Source of the DNA: an uncultured Olsenella sp.
Lineage (GTDB): Bacteria; Actinomycetota; Coriobacteriia; Coriobacteriales; Atopobiaceae
Direction: 5' to 3'
Assembly: GCA_900314495.1 (NCBI GenBank)
Contig: OMVJ01000016.1
Location: 1-64,000 of the forward strand
Length of the DNA stretch: 64,000 bases
Notes under the pieces: model-generated
Told to the model about the DNA's origin: nothing
The model's database searches: none
What the model saw: only the letters and a program-made list of their open reading frames with translations
Program-made: the position numbers and the translations under genes
Shown here: piece by piece, positions 19,514 through 31,300 of the stretch
How the letters are laid out: each line of letters begins with the position of its first letter
Numbering within the stretch: the first letter of the stretch is position 1

Positions 19514-21928
19514 TTAGTACTCCAACTCCGGGTAGCTTCCTGGATCTAGTGCCGCGCTGTCCATGGGCACGCTGGGTGCGTCCGGCCAACTGAGCACGCG
19601 GTCCAGCATGCCCGGCACATCCAGGACCGCGTAGGCAAAGCCCTTGCGAATGAGCTCCTCCGGCACGAACTCGTCGTACTTGTCGAAGTAGGGGACCTCC
19701 TGCGGGTAGAGCAGGTCCAGCGGGTCGAAGGGTGTGGCAGCTTCCTCCTTCAACACGCGGTAGAACGTCTCCGCATCGGCACGCATGGTGAACTGCATGA
19801 AGTAGGGGCGTGACGAGTCTAAGCCCTTAAGGCCCAGTCTGTCGGCGCACTTGATTTTGAGAAAGCGCTCCAGAGCGAGGAAGGCATAGCTGCCCAGCCA
19901 CGGGAAGAGGCACCAGGAAGTCCCGCCCAGGCGGATGAGGGGCTCGGTCGCCACGTGCGCGTTGGCCGCCACGTGGCGGGCCTGCCGGATGCGTGCCACC
20001 GCGTTGTGCTTGAGGTAGGGGTAACCGCGTTCCTCCTGCAACGCGGTGCGCATGCGCTCCAGGATCTTGGTGTTGATGTCACCGGCGACCATGCCAAAGA
20101 ACGCGGGCACCTTGCCCTTGACCTTGGTGCACTCGATGAGGTGGCGCTTGTAATCAATCTCCTCGATGACCCAGACGGCGCCAGCGATGGCGATGCGCTC
20201 ACCCACGGGTGGCGGTTGCACGATGGTGCCCAGTTCCTCGGATTCGCTACGGACCGTGAACTCCTCGTCTTCAGAGAAGACCGCATAGAACTTGAAGTTG
20301 TTCGTCACGCGCTCACCCGCGAGGCCCACGATGAGGCCGCCCTCGTCTGTGCGCTGGATGTGGTCAATCTCCAGCAGGTGTTGCAGCAGGGTACGGAAGT
20401 CATCGGTGGTAACGCGGTGGAAGGGCGTGAGCGTGAGCACGCGCCGGGCAAGCTCGGCGGGGGTCAGTTCGCCGGAGCTTGCCAGCGTGGCCATGGTCTG
20501 ATGGTAGAGGAGGCTGTAGGGAAGGCCGTCCAGCCTCGGGGGTTCCACCCAGCGCTCCTCCAGGTACAGCTGAACCAGGGCGATTCCCTGCAGCAACTTC
20601 CAGGGGATGGTCTCCGGCATGAGGGCACGGGCCTCTGGCTCCTCCTCGCGCATCAGAAACCACATCTCCGGCGGCTGGCCGCGACGTCCGGTGCGGCCCA
20701 TGCGCTGCAGGAACGAGCTTACCGTGAAGGGGGCGTCAATCTGGAAGGCGCGCTCAAGGCGGCCGATGTCTATGCCCAGCTCAAGCGTGGCGGTGGTGAC
20801 GGTGGTGAGGTTCATGTCCTCGTCACGCATGAGCTCCTCGGCAGACTCGCGCAAGCTTGCGGAGAGGTTGCCGTGGTGAATGAGGAAGCGGTCGGGCTCA
20901 CCCTCTGCCTCGCAGTACTGGCGCAGCGTGGTGGTAACGGATTCCGCCTCCTCACGCGAGTTGGCAAACACCAGGCATTTGCGTCCACGCGTGTGTTCGT
21001 AGACGTAGGCCAGGCCTGGGTCGGCAAAGACGGGCGCCTGGTCCGTTGGTGCCTCTGGGGCAGGCTGTTCTGGGTCTGGCATGGGGTCTGCGTCCGTCGC
21101 GTTGAGGTCTCGCGGCGGAACCCTCTCCTCCTGGGGCGATGCGTTGGGCGTGGGTGCCTCGTACGTGGGCTCGTCGGGCGCGGGCCCACGGCTGATGCCA
21201 TCCTCGCCGCGTTCGGGGGCCTGCGGTCCCGTGATGTAAAAGTGCTCCATGGAGAGGCGCCAGCGCTCCTTGGGCGCATCCATGCGCGGAATGATGCAGG
21301 AGCGTCCCGTGCCCATGCTGAGATATGCGCCCGTTGCCTCTGGGTTGCCGATGGTGGCCGAAAGGCCGATGCGCCGGGGGTTCACGCCCGCAAGGCGCGA
21401 GAGCCTCTCGATGCAGCAGAGCGTCTGGTCGCCTCGGTCCCCGCGCAGCAGCGAGTGCACCTCGTCGATGACAACGAAGCGTAGGTCACCGAATATGCGC
21501 CCGATGGCGGAGTGACGGTGCAGGAGCATGGACTCAAGCGATTCCGGCGTGATCTGCAGGACGCCGGAGGGATGCTTGAGCATCTTCGCCTTATGCGACT
21601 GGGAGACGTCACCGTGCCAGTGCCACACAGGAATGTCCCCCATGGCGCAAAGGTCTTCTAGGCGAAGGAACTGGTCGTTGATGAGGGCCTTCAGCGGGCC
21701 GATGTAGATGACCCCCACCGACGAGGGTGGGTCCTCCCAAAGCTCAGTGAGGATGGGGAAGAAGGCTGCCTCCGTCTTGCCGGAGGCAGTGGATGCCGTG
21801 AGGAGCACGTTGTCATCTGTGTTGAAGATGGCGTCCGCGGCTGCGACCTGCACGGAGCGCAGGTTCTCCCAGTCGTGCTCGTAAATGAAGTCCTGTATGA
21901 AGGGCGCGTAGCGGTCGAACACTCCCAT
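19514..21928 (-). CDS. SF2 DEAD/DEAH-box helicase, Lhr/BrxHI-like
   Basis: 804 residues. Motif I is TASGKTEAA (residues 45-53), motif II VIDEVHSLL, motif III GLSATIGNP, and motif VI QRMGRTGRRG. A Pro/Glu-rich insert of about 50 residues (near 235-290) separates the two RecA domains. A winged-helix and Lhr-core-like region follows to the end. Size and layout fit the BrxHI group of Lhr-like helicases known from BREX-type phage-defence islands rather than the 1,500-residue Lhr. It starts 16 bases after the stop of the BrxD-like ATPase gene, so both are in one operon. Likely remodels nucleic acid using ATP. Confidence 0.88.
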   Translation of the reverse strand: MGVFDRYAPFIQDFIYEHDWENLRSVQVAAADAIFNTDDNVLLTASTASGKTEAAFFPILTELWEDPPSSVGVIYIGPLKALINDQFLRLEDLCAMGDIPVWHWHGDVSQSHKAKMLKHPSGVLQITPESLESMLLHRHSAIGRIFGDLRFVVIDEVHSLLRGDRGDQTLCCIERLSRLAGVNPRRIGLSATIGNPEATGAYLSMGTGRSCIIPRMDAPKERWRLSMEHFYITGPQAPERGEDGISRGPAPDEPTYEAPTPNASPQEERVPPRDLNATDADPMPDPEQPAPEAPTDQAPVFADPGLAYVYEHTRGRKCLVFANSREEAESVTTTLRQYCEAEGEPDRFLIHHGNLSASLRESAEELMRDEDMNLTTVTTATLELGIDIGRLERAFQIDAPFTVSSFLQRMGRTGRRGQPPEMWFLMREEEPEARALMPETIPWKLLQGIALVQLYLEERWVEPPRLDGLPYSLLYHQTMATLASSGELTPAELARRVLTLTPFHRVTTDDFRTLLQHLLEIDHIQRTDEGGLIVGLAGERVTNNFKFYAVFSEDEEFTVRSESEELGTIVQPPPVGERIAIAGAVWVIEEIDYKRHLIECTKVKGKVPAFFGMVAGDINTKILERMRTALQEERGYPYLKHNAVARIRQARHVAANAHVATEPLIRLGGTSWCLFPWLGSYAFLALERFLKIKCADRLGLKGLDSSRPYFMQFTMRADAETFYRVLKEEAATPFDPLDLLYPQEVPYFDKYDEFVPEELIRKGFAYAVLDVPGMLDRVLSWPDAPSVPMDSAALDPGSYPELEY

Positions 21929-21944
21929 GGTGGATCACCTGCGA

Positions 21945-23336
21945 CTATATCTCGAACTCGGTGAAGTCGTCGTCACGTGGGGCCGTGCCTGCGGCGCGGG
22001 TGGTTGCCGCGGCATGCGCCGTCGCGGCAGTTTCACGTGCTGCGACGGGCGACTCCACCGGCTGCGAGAACTTGTCCGAGCCGAGTAGGTCCGACAGCTT
22101 TAGCTGCGGATTCTGCGCCAGGATGTCCAGCATCTCCACGAAGTCACGAATGACCTCACGTGGGGTGAGGTGCGTGTCGGCCCCCACACGGCCGTACTCC
22201 ACCTGCAGGAAGGTGACGAGGTCGTCCTGCGTGATGGTGCGCTCGTAGCCAAAGAGTCCGGCATGGATGTTGGCGAGCTTTTCTATGAGCACCAGCAGCT
22301 CCTCATGCGTGAGCGGCTGCAAGCGAATGACGGGGGCCAGCATGTCCACGAGCCCCTCCTGTGCAAAACGGCCCTGTGTCAGGCGAGAGCGCAGCGCCTC
22401 GTAGGAGTAGAGCCCGCGCCGGCGGTCCTCAATGGACTGCGGTGTGCCGCCCATGATGATGCCCAGGTAGTGCGCCTTGCCCTGCAGGGTGTCGTTGTAC
22501 ATGGTGAGGATCTTCTCGTAGTTGTACTGGCGGCTGATGGCGTTGGGAATCTTGTACAGGTTCACCAGCTCGTCCACAAGGACGATGAGGCCCGCGTAGC
22601 CAGCCCCCTTGAGGAAGGTGGCAAAGAGCTTGAGATAGTCATACCAGTCGTCGTCTCCGATGGCGATGTTCACGCCAAGCTCCTGACGCGCCTCCGTCTT
22701 GTTGCGGTACTCGCCGCGGAACCACTTGGTGACGCTTGCCATGGTCTCGTCGTCGCCCTCCAAGTGGGCGCGCCAGTACAGCGTGAGCAGGCGGGCGAAG
22801 TCGTAGCCATGCACCAGCTCCTGCAGCGAGCGGATGGTCTGGAGGATGCGCCGTTCTACGGCATCGGCGAATCCGGGGTCGTCGCGCGTGATGCCTTCAT
22901 CCAGCGTGACCTCTGACTCGACGTTGGAGATCCAGCGGTCGAGAATGAGGTTGAGCGCGCCGCCCTCCGGACGCGTCTTGGTGGAAAGGTTGCGGATGAG
23001 CTCGCGGTAGGTGGCCAGGCCCTGACCGTTACCACCCTGGAAGCGGCGTTCGGGCGAGAGGTCTGCGTCGCACACAACGAAGTTGTTGCCCATGGCGTGA
23101 TTGCGGATGGTCTGCAGCAGGAAGCTCTTGCCGCTGCCGTAGCGGCCCACCACAAAGCGGAAGCTGGCTCCGCCGTCCGCCACGAGTTCCAGATCGTGCA
23201 GGAGGGCGGCAATCTCCTTCTCGCGCCCGACGGTGATGTACGGCAGGCCGATGCGCGGCACGACGCCACCCTTGAGCGAGTTGATGATGACCGACGCGAT
23301 GCGCTTGGGTACGCGCGGGCTGTCCTGCTTCGCCAT
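21945..23336 (-). CDS. BrxD-like ATPase (DUF2791/BrxC_BrxD family)
   Basis: A 463-residue AAA-type ATPase. Walker A is GRYGSGKSFLLQ (about residues 64-75), Walker B GLIVLVDEL near 245, and the family hallmark ISRQYNYEKILTMYNDTLQG follows. The helicase-side end is Ala/Thr-rich and disordered. ATG 23336 is preceded by AGGAAGG. BrxD proteins occur with Lhr-like helicases in BREX type 2-like systems. Here the classic PglX methyltransferase, PglZ and PglY are absent. A LexA-type box overlaps its promoter, suggesting DNA-damage control. Confidence 0.87.
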   Translation of the reverse strand: MAKQDSPRVPKRIASVIINSLKGGVVPRIGLPYITVGREKEIAALLHDLELVADGGASFRFVVGRYGSGKSFLLQTIRNHAMGNNFVVCDADLSPERRFQGGNGQGLATYRELIRNLSTKTRPEGGALNLILDRWISNVESEVTLDEGITRDDPGFADAVERRILQTIRSLQELVHGYDFARLLTLYWRAHLEGDDETMASVTKWFRGEYRNKTEARQELGVNIAIGDDDWYDYLKLFATFLKGAGYAGLIVLVDELVNLYKIPNAISRQYNYEKILTMYNDTLQGKAHYLGIIMGGTPQSIEDRRRGLYSYEALRSRLTQGRFAQEGLVDMLAPVIRLQPLTHEELLVLIEKLANIHAGLFGYERTITQDDLVTFLQVEYGRVGADTHLTPREVIRDFVEMLDILAQNPQLKLSDLLGSDKFSQPVESPVAARETAATAHAAATTRAAGTAPRDDDFTEFEI

Positions 23337-23417: not shown

Positions 23418-23458
23418 ATGGTACACCCTTGCGGATGTGGGAACAAGTGTTCTATACT
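23418..23458. promoter_or_regulatory. Divergent promoters with LexA-type box
   Basis: GAACAAGTGTTC (23441-23452) fits the Gram-positive LexA box (GAAC-RNRY-GTTC). On the minus strand it overlaps the -35 of TTGTTC-17-TACCAT, which faces the ATPase-helicase operon. On the plus strand it fills the spacer of TTGCGG-18-TATACT (23429-23458), which faces the acyltransferase. Bound LexA would block both. Confidence 0.6.
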
Positions 23459-23580
23459 AATTCGCGGAACTCAGAGTTGTTGCAAGTGAGGACTGGGTTG
23501 CGCGCAGAGGTTCGGCGCGTCAGCTGCCGTAGTACCATTGCGTAACGTTTCTATCGCTCATTATGCATAGAGGGGGTCCC

Positions 23581-25839
23581 ATGACTTCAGGCCCACATTC
23601 CTCCTCGCGTATGCGGGGAGGGGTCCCGCGCACAGCATCAAATGGAGGCCGGCCCACTGGGTCTGGCAAGCGCTACGTAGCCTCGCTCGACGGGTTGCGC
23701 GCCATTTGCTGCATTGGCGTGGTGCTGTACCACATTGGCCTGAGCCATTGCCAAGGCGGGCTGCTGGGCGTGACCGTCCTCTTTGTGCTTTCGGGGTATC
23801 TGGCAACCGCTGGCCTTTTGCGCGAGCTCGCCACCACCCGCACCATCAAGGTCTGGAGCTACTGGAAGCGCCGCCTGTGGCGTCTCATGCCGCAGGTCAT
23901 AGCCTTCCTGGTGGTCACGGCCTGCCTCACCGCCACCCTGAACCAAGTATTGTTCACCAAGCTGCGGCAGGATTTCTTGCCCGCCCTCCTGGGCTACCTC
24001 AACTGGGCCAAGATCTTTGGGAATGAGTCCTATTTTGCCGCCGCTGAGGCCCCGTCGCCCGTCACTCACTTCTGGTCTTTGGCCATAGAGGCCCAGTTCT
24101 TCCTGGTTTGGCCACTCGTCCTTCTGCTCTTGCGGCGTCTTCGCGTGCGCATGAAGTGGACCAAAATCGGGACCTTGGCGGCGGTCGTCGTGTCTACCGG
24201 CCTCATGGCGGTGCTCTACACCCCTGGTACCGACCCCTCACGTGCCTACTACGGCACCGACACTCGTGCCCAGAGCCTGCTCTTGGGAGCCTTTGTTGCC
24301 ATGGTGTGGCCAATGCGGAAGCGCTCCAGCAAACCGATGGCTGCCTATCGCAACCCGCGAGATCGCGCCCTGCTCAATGCGGGGAGCGTCGTCGCACCCC
24401 TGGCAATAGTTGTTTTGATGGTCGCCACCAACGGCTACTCCAGCTTCTCGTACTGGGGCGGAACGCTGCTCGTCTCCGTTGTTGCCGCCGTCGCCCTTGA
24501 GTCCTTGCTGGTGCCGGGCACCGTGGGCAACAGGGTCCTGTCCCTTGGGCCGCTGGCATGGGTTGGCAAGCGCTCCTACGCCATCTACCTCTGGCACTTT
24601 CCTATAGTCGAGCTGCTGAACCCGCGCAACGCCACCGTGCCCCTGGCCTGGTGGCAGGTCTTGCTGCAGCTGCTGCTGGTGATCGCGGTGGCGGAGCTTT
24701 CGTACGTGCTGGTGGAGCAGCCCTTCTCGCACGGGCACAGGCAGGTTGTGGACTGGTTCCGGCAGGCGGGAGGCGTAGGCCACGGTTCTGGCCAGCACGA
24801 TGAGCCGTCTGGTTTGCTTCGCTCGTCCCGGGTTCCGCGCGTTGCGGCCGCCGTTGCATGCTGCGTCCTTGTTGCCTGGGCTGGCGTTGCCATGGCGGTG
24901 GTTCCCGATGCGGGTGCCGCCGCTGAAGCCGACCAACCCAAGGTGATGCGCGCCAACCTTAAGAAGCCCCTCGTGGATGGGGTGTACGACGTGGTGCTCA
25001 TCGGTGACTCGGTCTCGCTGGGGGCACACGACAACTTGTCGGCAGAGTTCCCGCATGGCCTCATGGATACCGAGGGTAATCGCGAGATTGACGCTGGCAT
25101 GCAGAACTTGCAGAGCTACCTCGACGAGGGCGTGGTGGGCGACACCGTCGTCATCTCGCTGGGCACCAACGGCGTTCTGTCTGAAGAGGACCTGGAGAAG
25201 ATTCACCAGATGGTGGGGAACGATCGGCAGCTGTACTTCGTGAACCTGCGTTCCCCCAATGCCAAGGACATAGACAACAACGAGCTCATAAACAGCTTTG
25301 TTGCCAAGTATGACAACGTTCACCTCATCGACTGGCATGGGGCAACGGAGGGTCACAGCGAGTACCTCATAGAGGATGGCATCCACCTGACCGAGGAGGG
25401 GCGCGACGCCTACGCCACGTTGGTAAGGGACACCATTGGCTATGAGGAGCCCAATGAGGAGAACACCCATTACAGCCTGGCCTTCGTCGGCGATGACGTG
25501 GCCTTGGATGCGGCCAGCCAGCTTGCGGCAGCCTACCCCATGGGTGCAATCGACACGGCAGACCGTACCCCGGACGAGATTCTAGAGGCACTCAAGTCCT
25601 ACACCGACGGTGATTTGATAGGCAGCAACGTTGCCGTGTCGGTGGGCTGCAAGCAACCTTTGCAGAAATCGACGGTCGAGCAGATTGTTGCCGCGGCGGG
25701 AGAGAAGGGTGTGGCTGATCAACACCCGCACGGCCTCCAGCTTCTGCGCCGACACCAATGCCACCCTGCAAGAGGTGGCGGACGAGCACGACAACGTCCA
25801 GCTGGTGGATTGGTACGGTGCCTCCGCGGGTCACAGTGA
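23581..25839 (+). CDS. OafA-type acyltransferase with SGNH domains, frameshifted
   Basis: A membrane O-acyltransferase (acyltransferase 3 family) starting SLDGLRAICCIGVVLYHIGL with about ten membrane segments to residue 390, including the conserved RRLWRLMPQ region. It is followed by an extracytoplasmic SGNH esterase domain with GDSVSLGA (near residue 475), SLGTNG and the DGIHLTEEG His motif. Such enzymes O-acetylate peptidoglycan or surface polysaccharide. ATG 23581 follows GAGGGGG; the earlier ATG at 23563 has no site. A second SGNH copy begins near 637 but has GDD in place of GDS, then the frame breaks at 25707-25709 and ends in an unrelated tail. Inserted between genes of the defence-like cassette. 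Confidence 0.85.
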   Translation: MTSGPHSSSRMRGGVPRTASNGGRPTGSGKRYVASLDGLRAICCIGVVLYHIGLSHCQGGLLGVTVLFVLSGYLATAGLLRELATTRTIKVWSYWKRRLWRLMPQVIAFLVVTACLTATLNQVLFTKLRQDFLPALLGYLNWAKIFGNESYFAAAEAPSPVTHFWSLAIEAQFFLVWPLVLLLLRRLRVRMKWTKIGTLAAVVVSTGLMAVLYTPGTDPSRAYYGTDTRAQSLLLGAFVAMVWPMRKRSSKPMAAYRNPRDRALLNAGSVVAPLAIVVLMVATNGYSSFSYWGGTLLVSVVAAVALESLLVPGTVGNRVLSLGPLAWVGKRSYAIYLWHFPIVELLNPRNATVPLAWWQVLLQLLLVIAVAELSYVLVEQPFSHGHRQVVDWFRQAGGVGHGSGQHDEPSGLLRSSRVPRVAAAVACCVLVAWAGVAMAVVPDAGAAAEADQPKVMRANLKKPLVDGVYDVVLIGDSVSLGAHDNLSAEFPHGLMDTEGNREIDAGMQNLQSYLDEGVVGDTVVISLGTNGVLSEEDLEKIHQMVGNDRQLYFVNLRSPNAKDIDNNELINSFVAKYDNVHLIDWHGATEGHSEYLIEDGIHLTEEGRDAYATLVRDTIGYEEPNEENTHYSLAFVGDDVALDAASQLAAAYPMGAIDTADRTPDEILEALKSYTDGDLIGSNVAVSVGCKQPLQKSTVEQIVAAAGEKGVADQHPHGLQLLRRHQCHPARGGGRARQRPAGGLVRCLRGSQ

Positions 25840-26032
25840 GTACCTGCAGGAGGACGGGGCCCACTTGACCGAAGCCGGTGCCCAGGCCTATGCAAAGACC
25901 CTGCTCGATGCGACGGGGGATCTGACCAGTGGCAGCGAATCTGGCAAGGGGACGGCCGACTCGGAGGAAGCCACTGACGAGGACGCTGCTGCTGGCGATG
26001 GAAGTGACGCCGCTTCGACGGAAGAGGCCTAA
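25710..26032 (+). pseudogene. Displaced C-terminal part of the acyltransferase's second SGNH domain
   Basis: The +1 frame from about 25710 continues the second SGNH domain: VWLINTRTASSFC, WYGASAGHSEYLQEDG and AHLTEAG, parallel to WHGATEGHSEYLIEDG and IHLTEEG in the first. A single extra G in the AAGGG run (25705-25709) explains the shift: without it the sequence reads GEKVWLINT. The end is an acidic, low-complexity tail. It may be a real mutation, a phase-variable tract, or a sequencing error. Confidence 0.75.
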
Positions 26033-26059: not shown

Positions 26060-28087
26060 CTACGACCCCAGAATTTCCCGCACGTCGTCGGCGTAGTCTT
26101 CGATGAGCGTCGGTCCGTCATCGCCGAATTCGATGACGGCATCGCCAATCTCGTCGAAGAGCTTCTCGTTGATGGAGTCGACGAGAACGGATTCCAACGG
26201 CTTGCCGGGGCCAAGGAGGTCCTGGTAGGGCTCGCTGGCGACGATTCGCCGCGCGACTTGGAGCTCGAGGTCGGTGAGCCCGCAAGGGTTGTGGCTGGGC
26301 GGCGCGGGCTGGCTCGTGACGGCTGCGGCTGCTGGCACTGCCGGAACGGCCTGGGCAAGTGGAGCCTTTGCCTGCGGCTTCTTTCGCGCGTAAGAGGTTT
26401 CCATGCCAGGCAACTGGGGTTGCTCGGCCGGTTGGGGCTGCGTCGCCTGCTCCATGCCCGGCACATAGCCCTCGCGCTCCTCGTCTATGAGGAGCGCCTC
26501 GCGCGTGGCCGCGGCGGCGGTGCGAATCTGCTTCAGCTGGGAAAGGTCGATGGTGATCTTGCGCTTCTCTGCCTCCACCTGGCGCTCATGCACGGCCGCG
26601 CTTTCCTTCGCGATCATCGTGCGCAGGTATTTTGGCAGCTCGCGCTCCTTGAGCGGCCGGTTGTACTGCCAGTCTGCACGCATCTGCTGGTCGATGGCGC
26701 GCAGCAGCTTGCCAAGCTCGCGGTTGCGCGCGGCGCGCTCGTAGCCGCGCTTGATGTTCCACCGTCCGAAACGGAACGAGACCGTCTCGCAGGCGGTCAG
26801 TCGTACGGTGACCTGCCCGTGGTCCTTGTCTTCCACGAAGGGTGCGCCGAGGAACGGCGTGTACTGGTAGCTCTCCTCGGGGCCAAGCAGGCCGTCCACG
26901 TAGTTGACCTTGCGTCGCTTGCCGCAGTGTGACGCGAGCTTGCGGAAGACTGCCGCGCCAACCGCCGCCGCCTCGTCCGGATGCTCGCGGAAGAAGGGCG
27001 AGCGGTCCAGCGGATAGGTTGAGACGGCACCCATGGCAGCCCAGAGCTGGGCGTCGGTCGGCAGCGTCTGCGGGGAGTCCGCGGGTGTCAGCCCGCGGAG
27101 GGACTCCTGGCACAGAACCGCGCGCTCTGCCGTGCGCAGCGCCGCCACGGCCTGCGCGTACGCGCGCTCGTCCTCCGTGGTTGCAAGCTTGGGGTCCAAG
27201 CCGTAGTAGATCACGAAGTCTCGGACCCAGCGGTTGAGGTCCAACAGCAGGTTCGCGCCAAGGTCCTGGGTGCCAAGCTCCTCGCAGCGCTGCCTCATGC
27301 GCCTGAGCTCGTCAAAGTGCGCGAGTTCGTCACCTGGCCCGATGTTGTTCACGAGCTCGCTGGCCAGCAGGTGGGCGTAGGTGTAGGGGAGCTCGTAGGC
27401 CGTGCCCGCGCGCCAGCTTGTGCGCCAGGTGAAGTAGCCCCGAAGCTCGCGGTCGGAAAGCTCCTGGTACGTGGGCAGGTAGCGATACCGCGGCGTTCCC
27501 ACCAGCGGCTGGTTGTCCTGGAAGTCCGCCGCAAGTCGCGCCTGCTGCAGGAACAGCCTGATGCCGCGCAAGGGGTGGCCGTCGGCGTCGTTGGACTGCT
27601 CCAGCGCGCGCAGCTGGCGTAGGGTCTCCGGAAGTTTGACCGGGATGACGTTCTCCTTCGCACGCAGACGGTCCTGCAGCCAGTTCCAGGTGGAGGTGGC
27701 CACGCGTTGCGCACCTTGGCTGCGCTGCGCGCTCTGGTCCTGGCGCGCCGGGGAACCCTGCGTGGCAGATGCTCCGCGCTGGGCGACGGCGTTCCGCCAT
27801 GCCGCCACGTCCCGCTGCTCGTCCTCGCCCTGTTGGCGGTAGGCCGCCTCCCGCGCGCGGCGCTTGCGCTCGAACTCGCTGCGGCTATGCGCGCTCGCGG
27901 CCGCACGTCTGTCCGCCGCGCGCTGCTGCGCGCGCTCCCGCTGAAGGTCTGCCCCGGTGCGCAGGATGGGTTCGTCGCTGTAAGAGCGCTGGGAGAATGC
28001 GGAGCTCTCGCGCATGCGGTCGCTGCCAAGAATCTGCTGGATGATCCTCTCCACGCGATCGTGATTCTCGTCGGGCTGCCCTGCCAT
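26060..28087 (-). CDS. TerB_N/TerB_C domain protein
   Basis: 675 residues. The N-terminal 170 are Arg/Gln/Ala-rich, probably coiled coil. TerB_N is recognised at about residues 195-260 (RYRYLPTYQELSDRELRGYF, TWRTSWRAG, PYTYAHLLASELVNNIG). The end (about 600-675) matches TerB_C (SVLVDSINEKLFDEIGDAVIEF, EDYADDVREIL). These two domains recur in proteins linked by gene neighbourhood to helicases and AAA ATPases. It is on the same strand as the ATPase and helicase, and only the opposite-strand acyltransferase separates them. AAGGGAGGTG precedes ATG 28087. Likely scaffold or sensor of the same system; function unproven. Confidence 0.8.
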   Translation of the reverse strand: MAGQPDENHDRVERIIQQILGSDRMRESSAFSQRSYSDEPILRTGADLQRERAQQRAADRRAAASAHSRSEFERKRRAREAAYRQQGEDEQRDVAAWRNAVAQRGASATQGSPARQDQSAQRSQGAQRVATSTWNWLQDRLRAKENVIPVKLPETLRQLRALEQSNDADGHPLRGIRLFLQQARLAADFQDNQPLVGTPRYRYLPTYQELSDRELRGYFTWRTSWRAGTAYELPYTYAHLLASELVNNIGPGDELAHFDELRRMRQRCEELGTQDLGANLLLDLNRWVRDFVIYYGLDPKLATTEDERAYAQAVAALRTAERAVLCQESLRGLTPADSPQTLPTDAQLWAAMGAVSTYPLDRSPFFREHPDEAAAVGAAVFRKLASHCGKRRKVNYVDGLLGPEESYQYTPFLGAPFVEDKDHGQVTVRLTACETVSFRFGRWNIKRGYERAARNRELGKLLRAIDQQMRADWQYNRPLKERELPKYLRTMIAKESAAVHERQVEAEKRKITIDLSQLKQIRTAAAATREALLIDEEREGYVPGMEQATQPQPAEQPQLPGMETSYARKKPQAKAPLAQAVPAVPAAAAVTSQPAPPSHNPCGLTDLELQVARRIVASEPYQDLLGPGKPLESVLVDSINEKLFDEIGDAVIEFGDDGPTLIEDYADDVREILGS

Positions 28088-28170
28088 ACGCACCTCCCTT
28101 GTCATGCCATCTAACCTGACCCAATAAACTGTAGGGCAAATTCTGGCCTGCTTGGTCAGAACGAGCGAAA

Positions 28171-28265
28171 GGTCTCGCGGCATTAGAGACTTCAAACGCC
28201 GCGAGACCTGCTGGAAAGTCAGTTGAGACGAGAAAGCGCGGCATTTGAGAGTCCAAATGCCGCGC
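28171..28265. repeat. Paired-palindrome element with CGCGGCATT arms
   Basis: Hairpin 1 pairs GGTCTCGCGGC with GCCGCGAGACC (28171-28208), and hairpin 2 pairs GCGCGGCATTTG with CAAATGCCGCGC (28236-28265). Their cores are homologous (CGCGGCATT-n-GAGA). The spacer ends ACGAGAAA. It lies between purL's end and the TerB gene and can terminate purL. Confidence 0.75.
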
Positions 28266-28303
28266 CGTTGGGGTTGTCAGGCTGTGCGTCCGACGCGCGT
28301 GCC

Positions 28304-31300
28304 CTACTCCGTGAAGTAGCTCACGCCGCCCTGGAAGAGGGGCTGGTAGGGGTTGCCGGGAACGTTCTGGTAGGTGCCCGCCGTGTAGCGCTCCGTGTGG
28401 CCCATCTTGCCCAGCACGCGGCCGTCCGGGCTGGTGATGCCCTCGATGGAGAGCACGGACCCGTTGGGGTTCACGCCCAGGTCCATGGAGGGGACACCGG
28501 CCTCATCCACGTACTGCGTGGCAATCTGGCCGCCGGCGCGAAGCTGCGCCAGCACCTCGGGCGAGGCCACGAAGCGGCCCTCGCCGTGGCTGATGGCCAC
28601 CGTGTGGATGTCACCAACCTGGCACTTGCTGAGCCAGGGGGAGAGGTCGCTGGCCACGCGCGTGCGGACCAGGCGGCTCTGGTGGCGGCCGATGGTGTTG
28701 AAGGTGAGCGTGGGGCACTTGTCCGTCATGGGCACGATGTCGCCGTAGGGCACCAGGCCCAGCTTGACCAGGGCCTGGAAGCCGTTGCAGATGCCCAGGA
28801 TCAGGCCGTCGCGGTTCTGCAGCAGGTCGCGCACGGCCTCCGTGACGGCGGGCGCGCGGAAGAAGGCCGTGATGAACTTGGCGGAGCCGTCGGGCTCGTC
28901 GCCGCCGGAGAAGCCGCCGGGGATCATGATGATCTGCGACTTGTTGATCTGCTCAACCAGGGCCTGGGTGCTCTGTGCCACGTTCTGCGGGGTGAGGTTG
29001 TTGACCACCAAGGTGGTGACGTCGGCGCCGGCGCGCTCGAAGGCGTGGGCGCTGTCGTACTCGCAGTTGTTGCCGGGGAAGACGGGGATGACCACGCGCG
29101 GCCGGGCCAGGTGCGCGTGGGCGCACACGGCCGGGGCCTCGCGGTGGAAGCTGACCTGCTCAACGGGCTCGCCCGCCTCGCGGTAGGGGAAGACGGGCTC
29201 CATGCGGGCCTCCCAGGCCTCCTGCAGCGGGGCCAGGTCCAGGGTCTGCCCAGCAACGGCAAGCTGGTAGGCCTGCGTGGTGGTGCCCAGCTCCTGCACG
29301 GTAACGCCCTCGGGCGCTGCGGGCAGGTCCGCTCCGTCGGCAAGCTCAACCAGGAAGCTGCCGTAGGCGGGGGCGAACAGGGCATCTGCGTCCGCGACGC
29401 CGCTCAGGTCCACGCCAATGCCGTTGCCCACGCACATCTTGAACAGGGCCTCCGCGGTGGCGCCGTAGCCCGGCGTGCTGACGGCGGCGGCAGCCTTGCT
29501 GGCGGCGAGCTGGCTGGCCAGGTCGCAGGCGGCCAGCAGGCTGGTGGCGTCTGGCGTGATGCCGTCCTCCCTGTAGCTGGGGGCAATCCGCACCACGCGG
29601 TGGCCGGCGGCCTTGAACTCCGGGGACGTGACGTTGGCCACGTTGCCCAGCGCAACGGCAAAGCTGACCAGGGTGGGCGGCACGTCCAGGTCCTCGAAGG
29701 AGCCGGACATGGAGTCCTTGCCGCCAATGGAGCCAATGCCCAGGTCCACCTGGGCCATGAGGGCACCCAGAACCGCCGCCGTGGGCTTGCCCCAGCGCTC
29801 GGGCTCGTCGCGGAGCTTCTCGAAGTACTCCTGGAAGGTCAGGTACATGTCCTCGTGCCTGAAGCCTGCCGCGACCAGCTTGGCCACGGACTCGACGACG
29901 GCCAGGTAGGCGCCCGTGAACTGGTTGGCGGAACTGAGGTAGGGGTTGAAGCCCCAGGCCATGCCGGACACCGTGGTGGTCTCGCCCTCAACGGGCAGCT
30001 TGGCCACCATGGCCATGCTGGGCGTGAGCTGGTTCCTGCCGCCAAAGGGCATGAGCACCGTGGCCGCGCCGATGGTGGAGTCAAAGCGCTCCGAGAGGCC
30101 CTTGTTGGAGGCCACGTTCATGTCCGTCACCAGGGAGTGCATCTTCTGCGCGAAGGTGTTGCCCTCCCACTCCGGCTTCCACTCGCCCTGGTGCTCGATG
30201 CGGACGATCTGGTGCTTGGGGGCGCCGTTGCTGGCAAGGAACTCGCGCGAGATGTCCACTATGGTCTCGCCGTCCCACACCATGCGCAGGCGGGGCTCCT
30301 CGGTCACGCGGGCAACGACGGTGGCCTCAAGGTTCTCCTCGTGGGCGTAGCCAATGAACTCGTCCACGTCCTCCGGCGCCAGGGCCACGGCCATGCGCTC
30401 CTGGGACTCGCTGATGGCCAGCTCCGTGCCGTCCAGGCCCTCGTACTTCTTGGGCACGCGGTTGAGGTCAATGAAGAGGCCGTCCGCCAGCTCGCCAATG
30501 GCAACGGAGACGCCGCCTGCGCCAAAGTCGTTGCAGCGCTTGATGAGGCGGCAGGCGTCGCCGCGGCGGAACAGGCGCTGCAGCTTGCGCTCCGTGGGGG
30601 CGTTGCCCTTCTGGACCTCCGCGCCGTCCTTCTCCAGCGACTCCACGTTGTGGGCCTTGGAGGAGCCGGTTGCGCCGCCAATGCCGTCGCGACCGGTGCG
30701 GCCGCCGAGCAGGACGATCTTGTCGCCGGGGGCCGGGGTCTCGCGACGCACGTGGTCCGCCGGGGTGGCACCCACCACGGCGCCGATCTCCATGCGCTTG
30801 GCCACGTAGCCGGGGTGGTACAGCTCGTTCACCTGGCCGGTTGCGAGGCCAATCTGGTTGCCGTAGCTGGAGTAGCCCGCGGCGGCCGTGCGCACAATCT
30901 GGCGCTGAGGCAGCTTGCCCTTCATGGTCTGGCTGACGGGGGTGAAGGGGTCGCCGGCGCCGGTGACGCGCATGGCCTGGTACACGTAGCTGCGGCCGGA
31001 CAGCGGGTCGCGAATGGCGCCGCCGATGCAGGTTGCCGCGCCACCGAAGGGCTCAATCTCCGTGGGGTGGTTGTGGGTCTCGTTCTTGAAGAGGAAGAGC
31101 CAGTCCTGCTGCTCGCCGTTCACGTCCACCTTGCACTTGATGGTGCAGGCGTTGATCTCCTCGGACTCGTCCAGGTTCTTGAGGATGCCCTTGGCGCGCA
31201 GGTACTTGGCACCGATGGTGCCCATGTCCATGAGGCAGACGGGCTTCTTGGTGCGGCCCAGCTCCTCGCGCATCTTAAGGTACTGGTTGAAGGCGTCCCA

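What the first reader, a model, noticed from the sequence alone, without database searches (positions are those of the whole stretch)
23418..23458. LexA-type box shared by divergent promoters of the helicase cassette and the acyltransferase
GAACAAGTGTTC exactly fits the Gram-positive SOS box. It overlaps the -35 of a TTGTTC-17-TACCAT promoter for the ATPase and helicase genes, and fills the spacer of a TTGCGG-18-TATACT promoter for the acyltransferase. DNA damage would turn on both arms at once, tying a defence-like module and a cell-surface enzyme to the SOS response.
Basis: partly seen in the sequence, partly recalled or inferred. Interest (0 to 1): 0.7.

Follow-up and report, generated by a model that had tools for sequence, protein, structure and literature searches.

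The report
DNA-damage switch on Shango defence genes
A binding site for LexA, the repressor that bacteria release when their DNA is damaged, sits in front of two of the three genes of the Shango anti-phage system, and the link is conserved across a class of gut and oral bacteria even where the genes have been pulled apart, so this defence is probably switched on by the SOS response.

Summary
The box GAACAAGTGTTC is real (23441-23452). The 'helicase cassette' is the Shango anti-phage system: SngC, SngB and, beyond the acyltransferase, SngA. A LexA matrix built only from lexA and recA promoters scores the box 16.7 bits. That is the best site in the 64 kb (next 7.9), between this genome's own ruvC (16.3) and recA (19.1) boxes. 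Alone it is only suggestive: 6% of simulated 64-kb sequences hold one as good. Conservation settles the Shango arm: 36 of 40 related Shango loci have a LexA site upstream of sngA or between sngA and sngB, against 0.7% of random windows. Where other genes separate sngC from sngB, sngC has its own box 35-39 bp upstream in five of eight loci. The acyltransferase arm is unproven. The box fills its promoter spacer as at two other boxes of this genome, but none of 29 acyltransferase homologues has a box, and the gene looks like a private insertion beside the Shango box. I found no report linking Shango to LexA. Shango copies from an E. coli and an Arthrobacter plasmid lack the control; Bacilli are mixed. 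Binding and induction remain untested.

The parts
23441..23452 (.). LexA (SOS) box GAACAAGTGTTC
   Evidence: 16.7 bits with a matrix from lexA/recA promoters, best in the window; boxes at the same sngA-sngB junction in several relatives
23418..23446 (-). promoter of sngB-sngC: -35 TTGTTC inside the box, 17-nt spacer, -10 TACCAT
   Evidence: sequence; three relatives have TACAAT 18-20 nt after the box half-site GTTC
23429..23458 (+). putative promoter of the acyltransferase: TTGCGG, 18-nt spacer ending with the box, TATACT
   Evidence: sequence; same GTTC-TATACT junction at own-genome boxes in L003 and L068; not conserved at acyltransferase homologues
21945..23336 (-). sngB, BrxC/BrxD-type AAA ATPase of Shango; likely start ATG at 23336 with AGGAAGG upstream
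   Evidence: PF10923 E 2e-169, PADLOC SngB E 2e-191
19514..21928 (-). sngC, superfamily 2 DEAD/DEAH helicase of Shango
   Evidence: PF00270 and PF00271, PADLOC SngC E 2e-272
26060..28195 (-). sngA, TerB_N/TerB_C protein of Shango, separated from sngB by the acyltransferase; true start may lie further in; no LexA box upstream
   Evidence: PF13208 and PF15615, PADLOC SngA E 5e-66; best site near 28100-28400 scores below 0
23563..26032 (+). acyltransferase gene (Acyl_transf_3 plus C-terminal SGNH/GDSL-like domains) inserted between sngA and sngB; reading frame broken near 25710
   Evidence: PF01757 E 6e-28; homologues have open frames of about 770-980 aa; frame change seen

Best explanation
The site is an operator for LexA, the SOS repressor. 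LexA bound at 23441-23452 covers the -35 region of the sngBC promoter and keeps the ATPase and helicase of Shango low. When DNA damage or stalled or foreign replication makes single-stranded DNA, RecA filaments make LexA cut itself, the site is freed and sngB-sngC are transcribed. This adds the motor proteins to SngA, which in this genome has no detectable LexA box. The arrangement is an old one in Coriobacteriia: the box heads the sngABC operon or the sngBC part of it, and where sngC has been split off it often heads sngC too. In the window genome an acyltransferase gene was inserted, facing away, between sngA and the box; its promoter uses the same operator from the other side and may be repressed with it as a by-product. 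Shown: the match to the LexA motif, the presence of lexA and recA with boxes, and the conservation. Inferred: LexA binding, induction, and what Shango does during SOS.
For: Own-genome LexA targets carry the motif: lexA, recA, uvrA, ruvCAB, dinB. recA promoters of 23 of 26 related genomes have an exact GAACN4GTTC box, and their lexA promoters carry two or three boxes including GTACN4GTTC, GAACN4GTTT and GAACN4GTAC, the same one-base variants found at Shango promoters. In 36 of 40 Shango loci a site of at least 12 bits lies upstream of sngA (29) or of sngB (9), against 0.7% of random 250-bp windows. A second, partly overlapping set gives 14 of 16 upstream of sngA and the other two in the gap before sngB. 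In L041, L043, L045, L046, L047 and L052, where sngC is apart from sngB, a box of 17.7-25.4 bits sits 35-39 bp before sngC. In L040 another gene is inserted between sngA and sngB and the box stays with sngB, as in the window.
Against: No binding or expression data. Taken alone, the score is reached by chance in 6% of 64-kb sequences. Three loci with genes between sngB and sngC have no box before sngC (L036, L048, L055), nor do several loci with gaps of 50-175 bp. sngA of the window has no box, so the whole three-protein system is not obviously induced together. Relatives share ancestry, so the 36 of 40 are not independent events.
Confidence: 0.85

Rival explanations
1. True shared operator: LexA controls both the Shango genes and the acyltransferase, and joint SOS induction of a defence module and a cell-surface enzyme was selected.
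For: The box fills the 12 bp directly before the acyltransferase -10 (GTTC-TATACT), the same junction as at own-genome boxes in L003 and L068, and like GTTC-TATCAT in L076.
Against: 29 acyltransferase homologues have no box upstream (best score 9.3); no other relative examined has the acyltransferase at this place; its reading frame is broken near its end.
Confidence: 0.3
2. The site is a chance palindrome with no LexA function.
For: Two GAACN4GTTC matches in the window with 0.86 expected; a best score of 16.7 or more arises in 6% of simulated windows.
Against: Boxes at the same junction in L017, L019 and L032, at the operon head in most other relatives, and again before split-off sngC genes.
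Confidence: 0.06
3. The conserved Shango site is bound by another regulator with a similar palindrome, not by LexA.
For: Many Shango sites deviate from the perfect palindrome by the same base within a clade (GTACN4GTTC, GAACN4GTTT).
Against: The same deviations occur in the boxes of the lexA promoters of the same genomes, and the matrix built without any Shango site finds them.
Confidence: 0.08
4. In Coriobacteriia the three genes serve mainly DNA repair rather than phage defence, which would explain both SOS control and apparently vertical inheritance. This concerns the role of the genes and is compatible with the best explanation.
For: SngB is in 136 of 298 Coriobacteriia genomes and 34 of 125 genera; the same neighbour purL is seen in several genera; the operon appears to be in the SOS regulon.
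Against: Shango of Pseudomonas aeruginosa and E. coli blocks phages (PMC10250203); about half of the class lacks it; no repair phenotype is known.
Confidence: 0.25

Closest known systems
Shango (SngABC) anti-phage system
   Same: All three proteins match the PADLOC models with E from 5e-66 to 2e-272; same domains as the tested system: TerB-like protein, ATPase, helicase (PMC10250203).
   Different: An acyltransferase gene separates sngA from sngB; the promoter carries a LexA box. A plasmid Shango from E. coli has no CTGTN8ACAG box and an Arthrobacter plasmid copy no good box.
LexA/SOS regulon of Gram-positive bacteria
   Same: Same operator type GAACRNRYGTTC as at recA, lexA, uvrA, ruvC and dinB of this genome.
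   Different: The target is an anti-phage system; I found no paper linking Shango with LexA control. The one paper with both words mentions them separately.
BREX BrxD/BrxC ATPase and BrxHI helicase
   Same: SngB falls in the BrxC_BrxD Pfam family and SngC scores against BrxHI.
   Different: PADLOC scores for BrxD and BrxHI are far below those for SngB and SngC; the third partner is a TerB protein, as in Shango.

Membership tests
LexA operator (Gram-positive SOS box) | palindrome matching the motif derived from lexA and recA promoters of the lineage | tested here: met
   16.7 bits, within the range of known targets of this genome
LexA operator (Gram-positive SOS box) | position overlapping a promoter of the target gene | tested here: met
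   box covers the -35 of the sngB promoter; -10 TACCAT here, TACAAT in three relatives; promoters judged from sequence only
LexA operator (Gram-positive SOS box) | genome encodes LexA and RecA | tested here: met
   lexA at C54:55972, recA in L071
LexA operator (Gram-positive SOS box) | LexA binding and damage-induced transcription | not testable with these tools
   needs gel shift and RNA measurements
Shango | SngA, SngB and SngC all present | tested here: met
   PADLOC SngA E 5e-66, SngB E 2e-191, SngC E 2e-272
Shango | three genes in one contiguous A-B-C operon (usual, not strictly required) | tested here: not met
   order kept, but an acyltransferase gene lies between sngA and sngB; most relatives are contiguous
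Shango | anti-phage activity | not testable with these tools
   shown for P. aeruginosa and E. coli systems only (PMC10250203)
SOS control of the acyltransferase | box conserved upstream of orthologues | tested here: not met
   29 homologue loci, best score 9.3

The most novel reading that the evidence does not exclude
In Coriobacteriia Shango is a built-in part of the SOS response. LexA holds it back until DNA damage or invading replication produces single-stranded DNA, and selection rebuilds a LexA box in front of the pieces when the operon is broken up. Shango would then be an inducible genome-integrity device rather than a constitutive defence.
Probability: 0.55. Interest if true: 0.75.

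Novelty: new variant of a known kind. Interest (0 to 1): 0.58.

Why it matters
How most anti-phage systems are switched on is unknown, and Shango's mechanism is, as far as I could find, unsolved. A conserved LexA operator points to single-stranded DNA or DNA damage as the trigger. It predicts that phages or drugs that raise the SOS response prime this defence, and gives a simple test: mitomycin C induction in culturable Olsenella or Parafannyhessea.

Tried and rejected
A box upstream of sngA in the window genome: none (best score near 28100-28400 below 0). Conserved SOS control of the acyltransferase: 29 homologue loci, none. Generality outside Coriobacteriia: E. coli plasmid copy has no CTGTN8ACAG, Arthrobacter plasmid copy nothing convincing; in Bacilli about 6 of 26 testable loci have a site in the top 1-2% of background, about ten share a weak site GGATACACTTGTTCGT or a close variant, the rest have none. 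Phage-borne Shango: no match in the phage collection. The aligner misplaced the window row in the promoter alignment, so promoter spacings were counted by hand from the sequences. My first SngB query was one base out of frame and was redone.

Full report
What is there. The palindrome GAACAAGTGTTC lies at 23441-23452 in the 226-bp gap between a minus-strand ATPase gene starting at 23336 and a plus-strand acyltransferase gene starting at 23563. The window belongs to a 2.8-Mb genome whose SngB is closest, among named records, to those of a Coriobacteriaceae MAG (88%) and of Parafannyhessea umbonata (84%), so it is a member of the Atopobiaceae or close to it.

What the genes are. The ATPase and helicase match Shango SngB (E 2e-191) and SngC (E 2e-272), and the minus-strand TerB_N/TerB_C gene at 26060-28195 matches SngA (E 5e-66). 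Shango is a three-gene anti-phage system tested in Pseudomonas aeruginosa and E. coli (PMC10250203). In most relatives the genes are contiguous in the order A-B-C. In the window genome the acyltransferase gene sits between sngA and sngB, pointing the other way and ending tail-to-tail with sngA.

Is it a LexA site? The exact pattern alone is weak evidence: 2 in the window against 0.86 expected, 35 places in the genome. I read the surroundings of the genome's places. They include the expected SOS genes: lexA, recA, uvrA, ruvCAB and dinB; the lexA box also faces a LysM gene. A matrix was then built from lexA and recA promoter boxes of related genomes and of this genome, without any Shango sequence. 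The window site scores 16.7 bits; the next best in 64 kb scores 7.9; own ruvC and recA boxes score 16.3 and 19.1. Simulated sequences of the same length and dinucleotide content reach 16.7 somewhere in 19 of 300 cases, so the single site would not be convincing without conservation.

Conservation. One scan of GTDB genomes brought 40 Shango loci, nearly all from Coriobacteriia. In 36 of 40 a site of at least 12 bits lies upstream of sngA (29) or within 170 bp upstream of sngB (9, two of them also in the first group and probably coincidental matches in coding sequence); random 250-bp windows of the same loci reach this in 0.7%. A second, partly overlapping set of 16 gives 14 upstream of sngA and 2 in the sngA-sngB gap. 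The near relatives L017, L019 and L032 have exact boxes at the same junction as the window, and G002, of the same genus, has one upstream of sngA instead. Many Shango boxes deviate by one base (GTACN4GTTC, GAACN4GTTT, GAACN4GTAC); the lexA promoters of the same genomes carry these same variants, which speaks for LexA rather than another regulator.

Boxes follow the transcription units. In L043, L045, L046, L047 and L052 sngC lies 1.2-5.2 kb from sngB with other genes between, and in L041 a 93-bp gap separates them; each time a box of 17.7-25.4 bits lies 35-39 bp before sngC. Three loci with larger separations (L036, L048, L055) have none, and several loci with gaps of 50-175 bp have none. In L040 a different gene is inserted between sngA and sngB and the box stays in front of sngB, as in the window. 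This argues that LexA control has often been kept or regained when the operon broke up.

The acyltransferase arm. The box fills the 12 bp before TATACT, the same junction as at own-genome boxes in L003 and L068, so repression of this promoter by LexA is plausible. But 29 homologue loci have no box upstream (best 9.3), and no relative examined has the gene here. The gene's frame is broken near 25710, leaving its last part out of frame, while homologues are open over about 770-980 codons. I read this arm as a probable by-product of insertion next to an existing operator.

How it likely works. LexA sits on the -35 of the sngBC promoter. Single-stranded DNA from damage, or from phage or plasmid replication, activates RecA, LexA cuts itself, and the ATPase and helicase are made (established SOS biology; the application to this promoter is inferred). 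That SngC belongs to a helicase clade of anti-phage systems (PMC12278908) fits a function on unusual DNA structures. Binding and induction are not shown.

How general. SngB is in 136 of 298 Coriobacteriia genomes and 34 of 125 genera, in several genera beside the same chromosomal gene (purL), which suggests long vertical inheritance. The plasmid copies tested from E. coli and Arthrobacter lack the control and Bacilli are mixed, so SOS control is a feature of the lineage, not of Shango as such. The library search found no paper linking Shango and LexA; most subscription papers are not covered.

Noticed in passing
L077:1501-2626 (G000 C61): A gene for an Abi_2-type abortive-infection protein has two LexA-like boxes upstream (23.6 and 14.3 bits), a second defence-like gene apparently under SOS control in this genome.
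   Followed up: partly
window 25690-25730: Reading frame of the acyltransferase gene changes near 25710, putting the last SGNH-like part out of frame; real or a sequencing error.
   Followed up: partly
L018, L022, L023, L025, L026, L029, L030 at about 9830: In Olsenella/Tractidigestivibacter a further strong LexA box lies directly after sngC, before a small gene (about 190-200 aa) with no Pfam match where tested.
   Followed up: no
lexA promoters L106-L131: Coriobacteriia lexA promoters carry two or three LexA boxes, mostly about 23-29 bp apart, with position-specific one-base deviations conserved across genera.
   Followed up: partly
L003, L068 (G000 C17 and C53): Two similar small genes of 82 and 88 codons have LexA boxes with the same GTTC-TATACT junction; no Pfam match for the 82-aa protein, the only one tested.
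   Followed up: no
L063:1501-2574 (G000 C43): A gene with an ORF6N domain, common in phages, has a 22.4-bit LexA box directly upstream.
   Followed up: no
L168, L171, L173, L176, L185 and L183-L195: Some Bacilli Shango loci share weak LexA-like sites (GCGAACAAATTTTCGG, GGATACACTTGTTCGT) upstream of sngA.
   Followed up: partly
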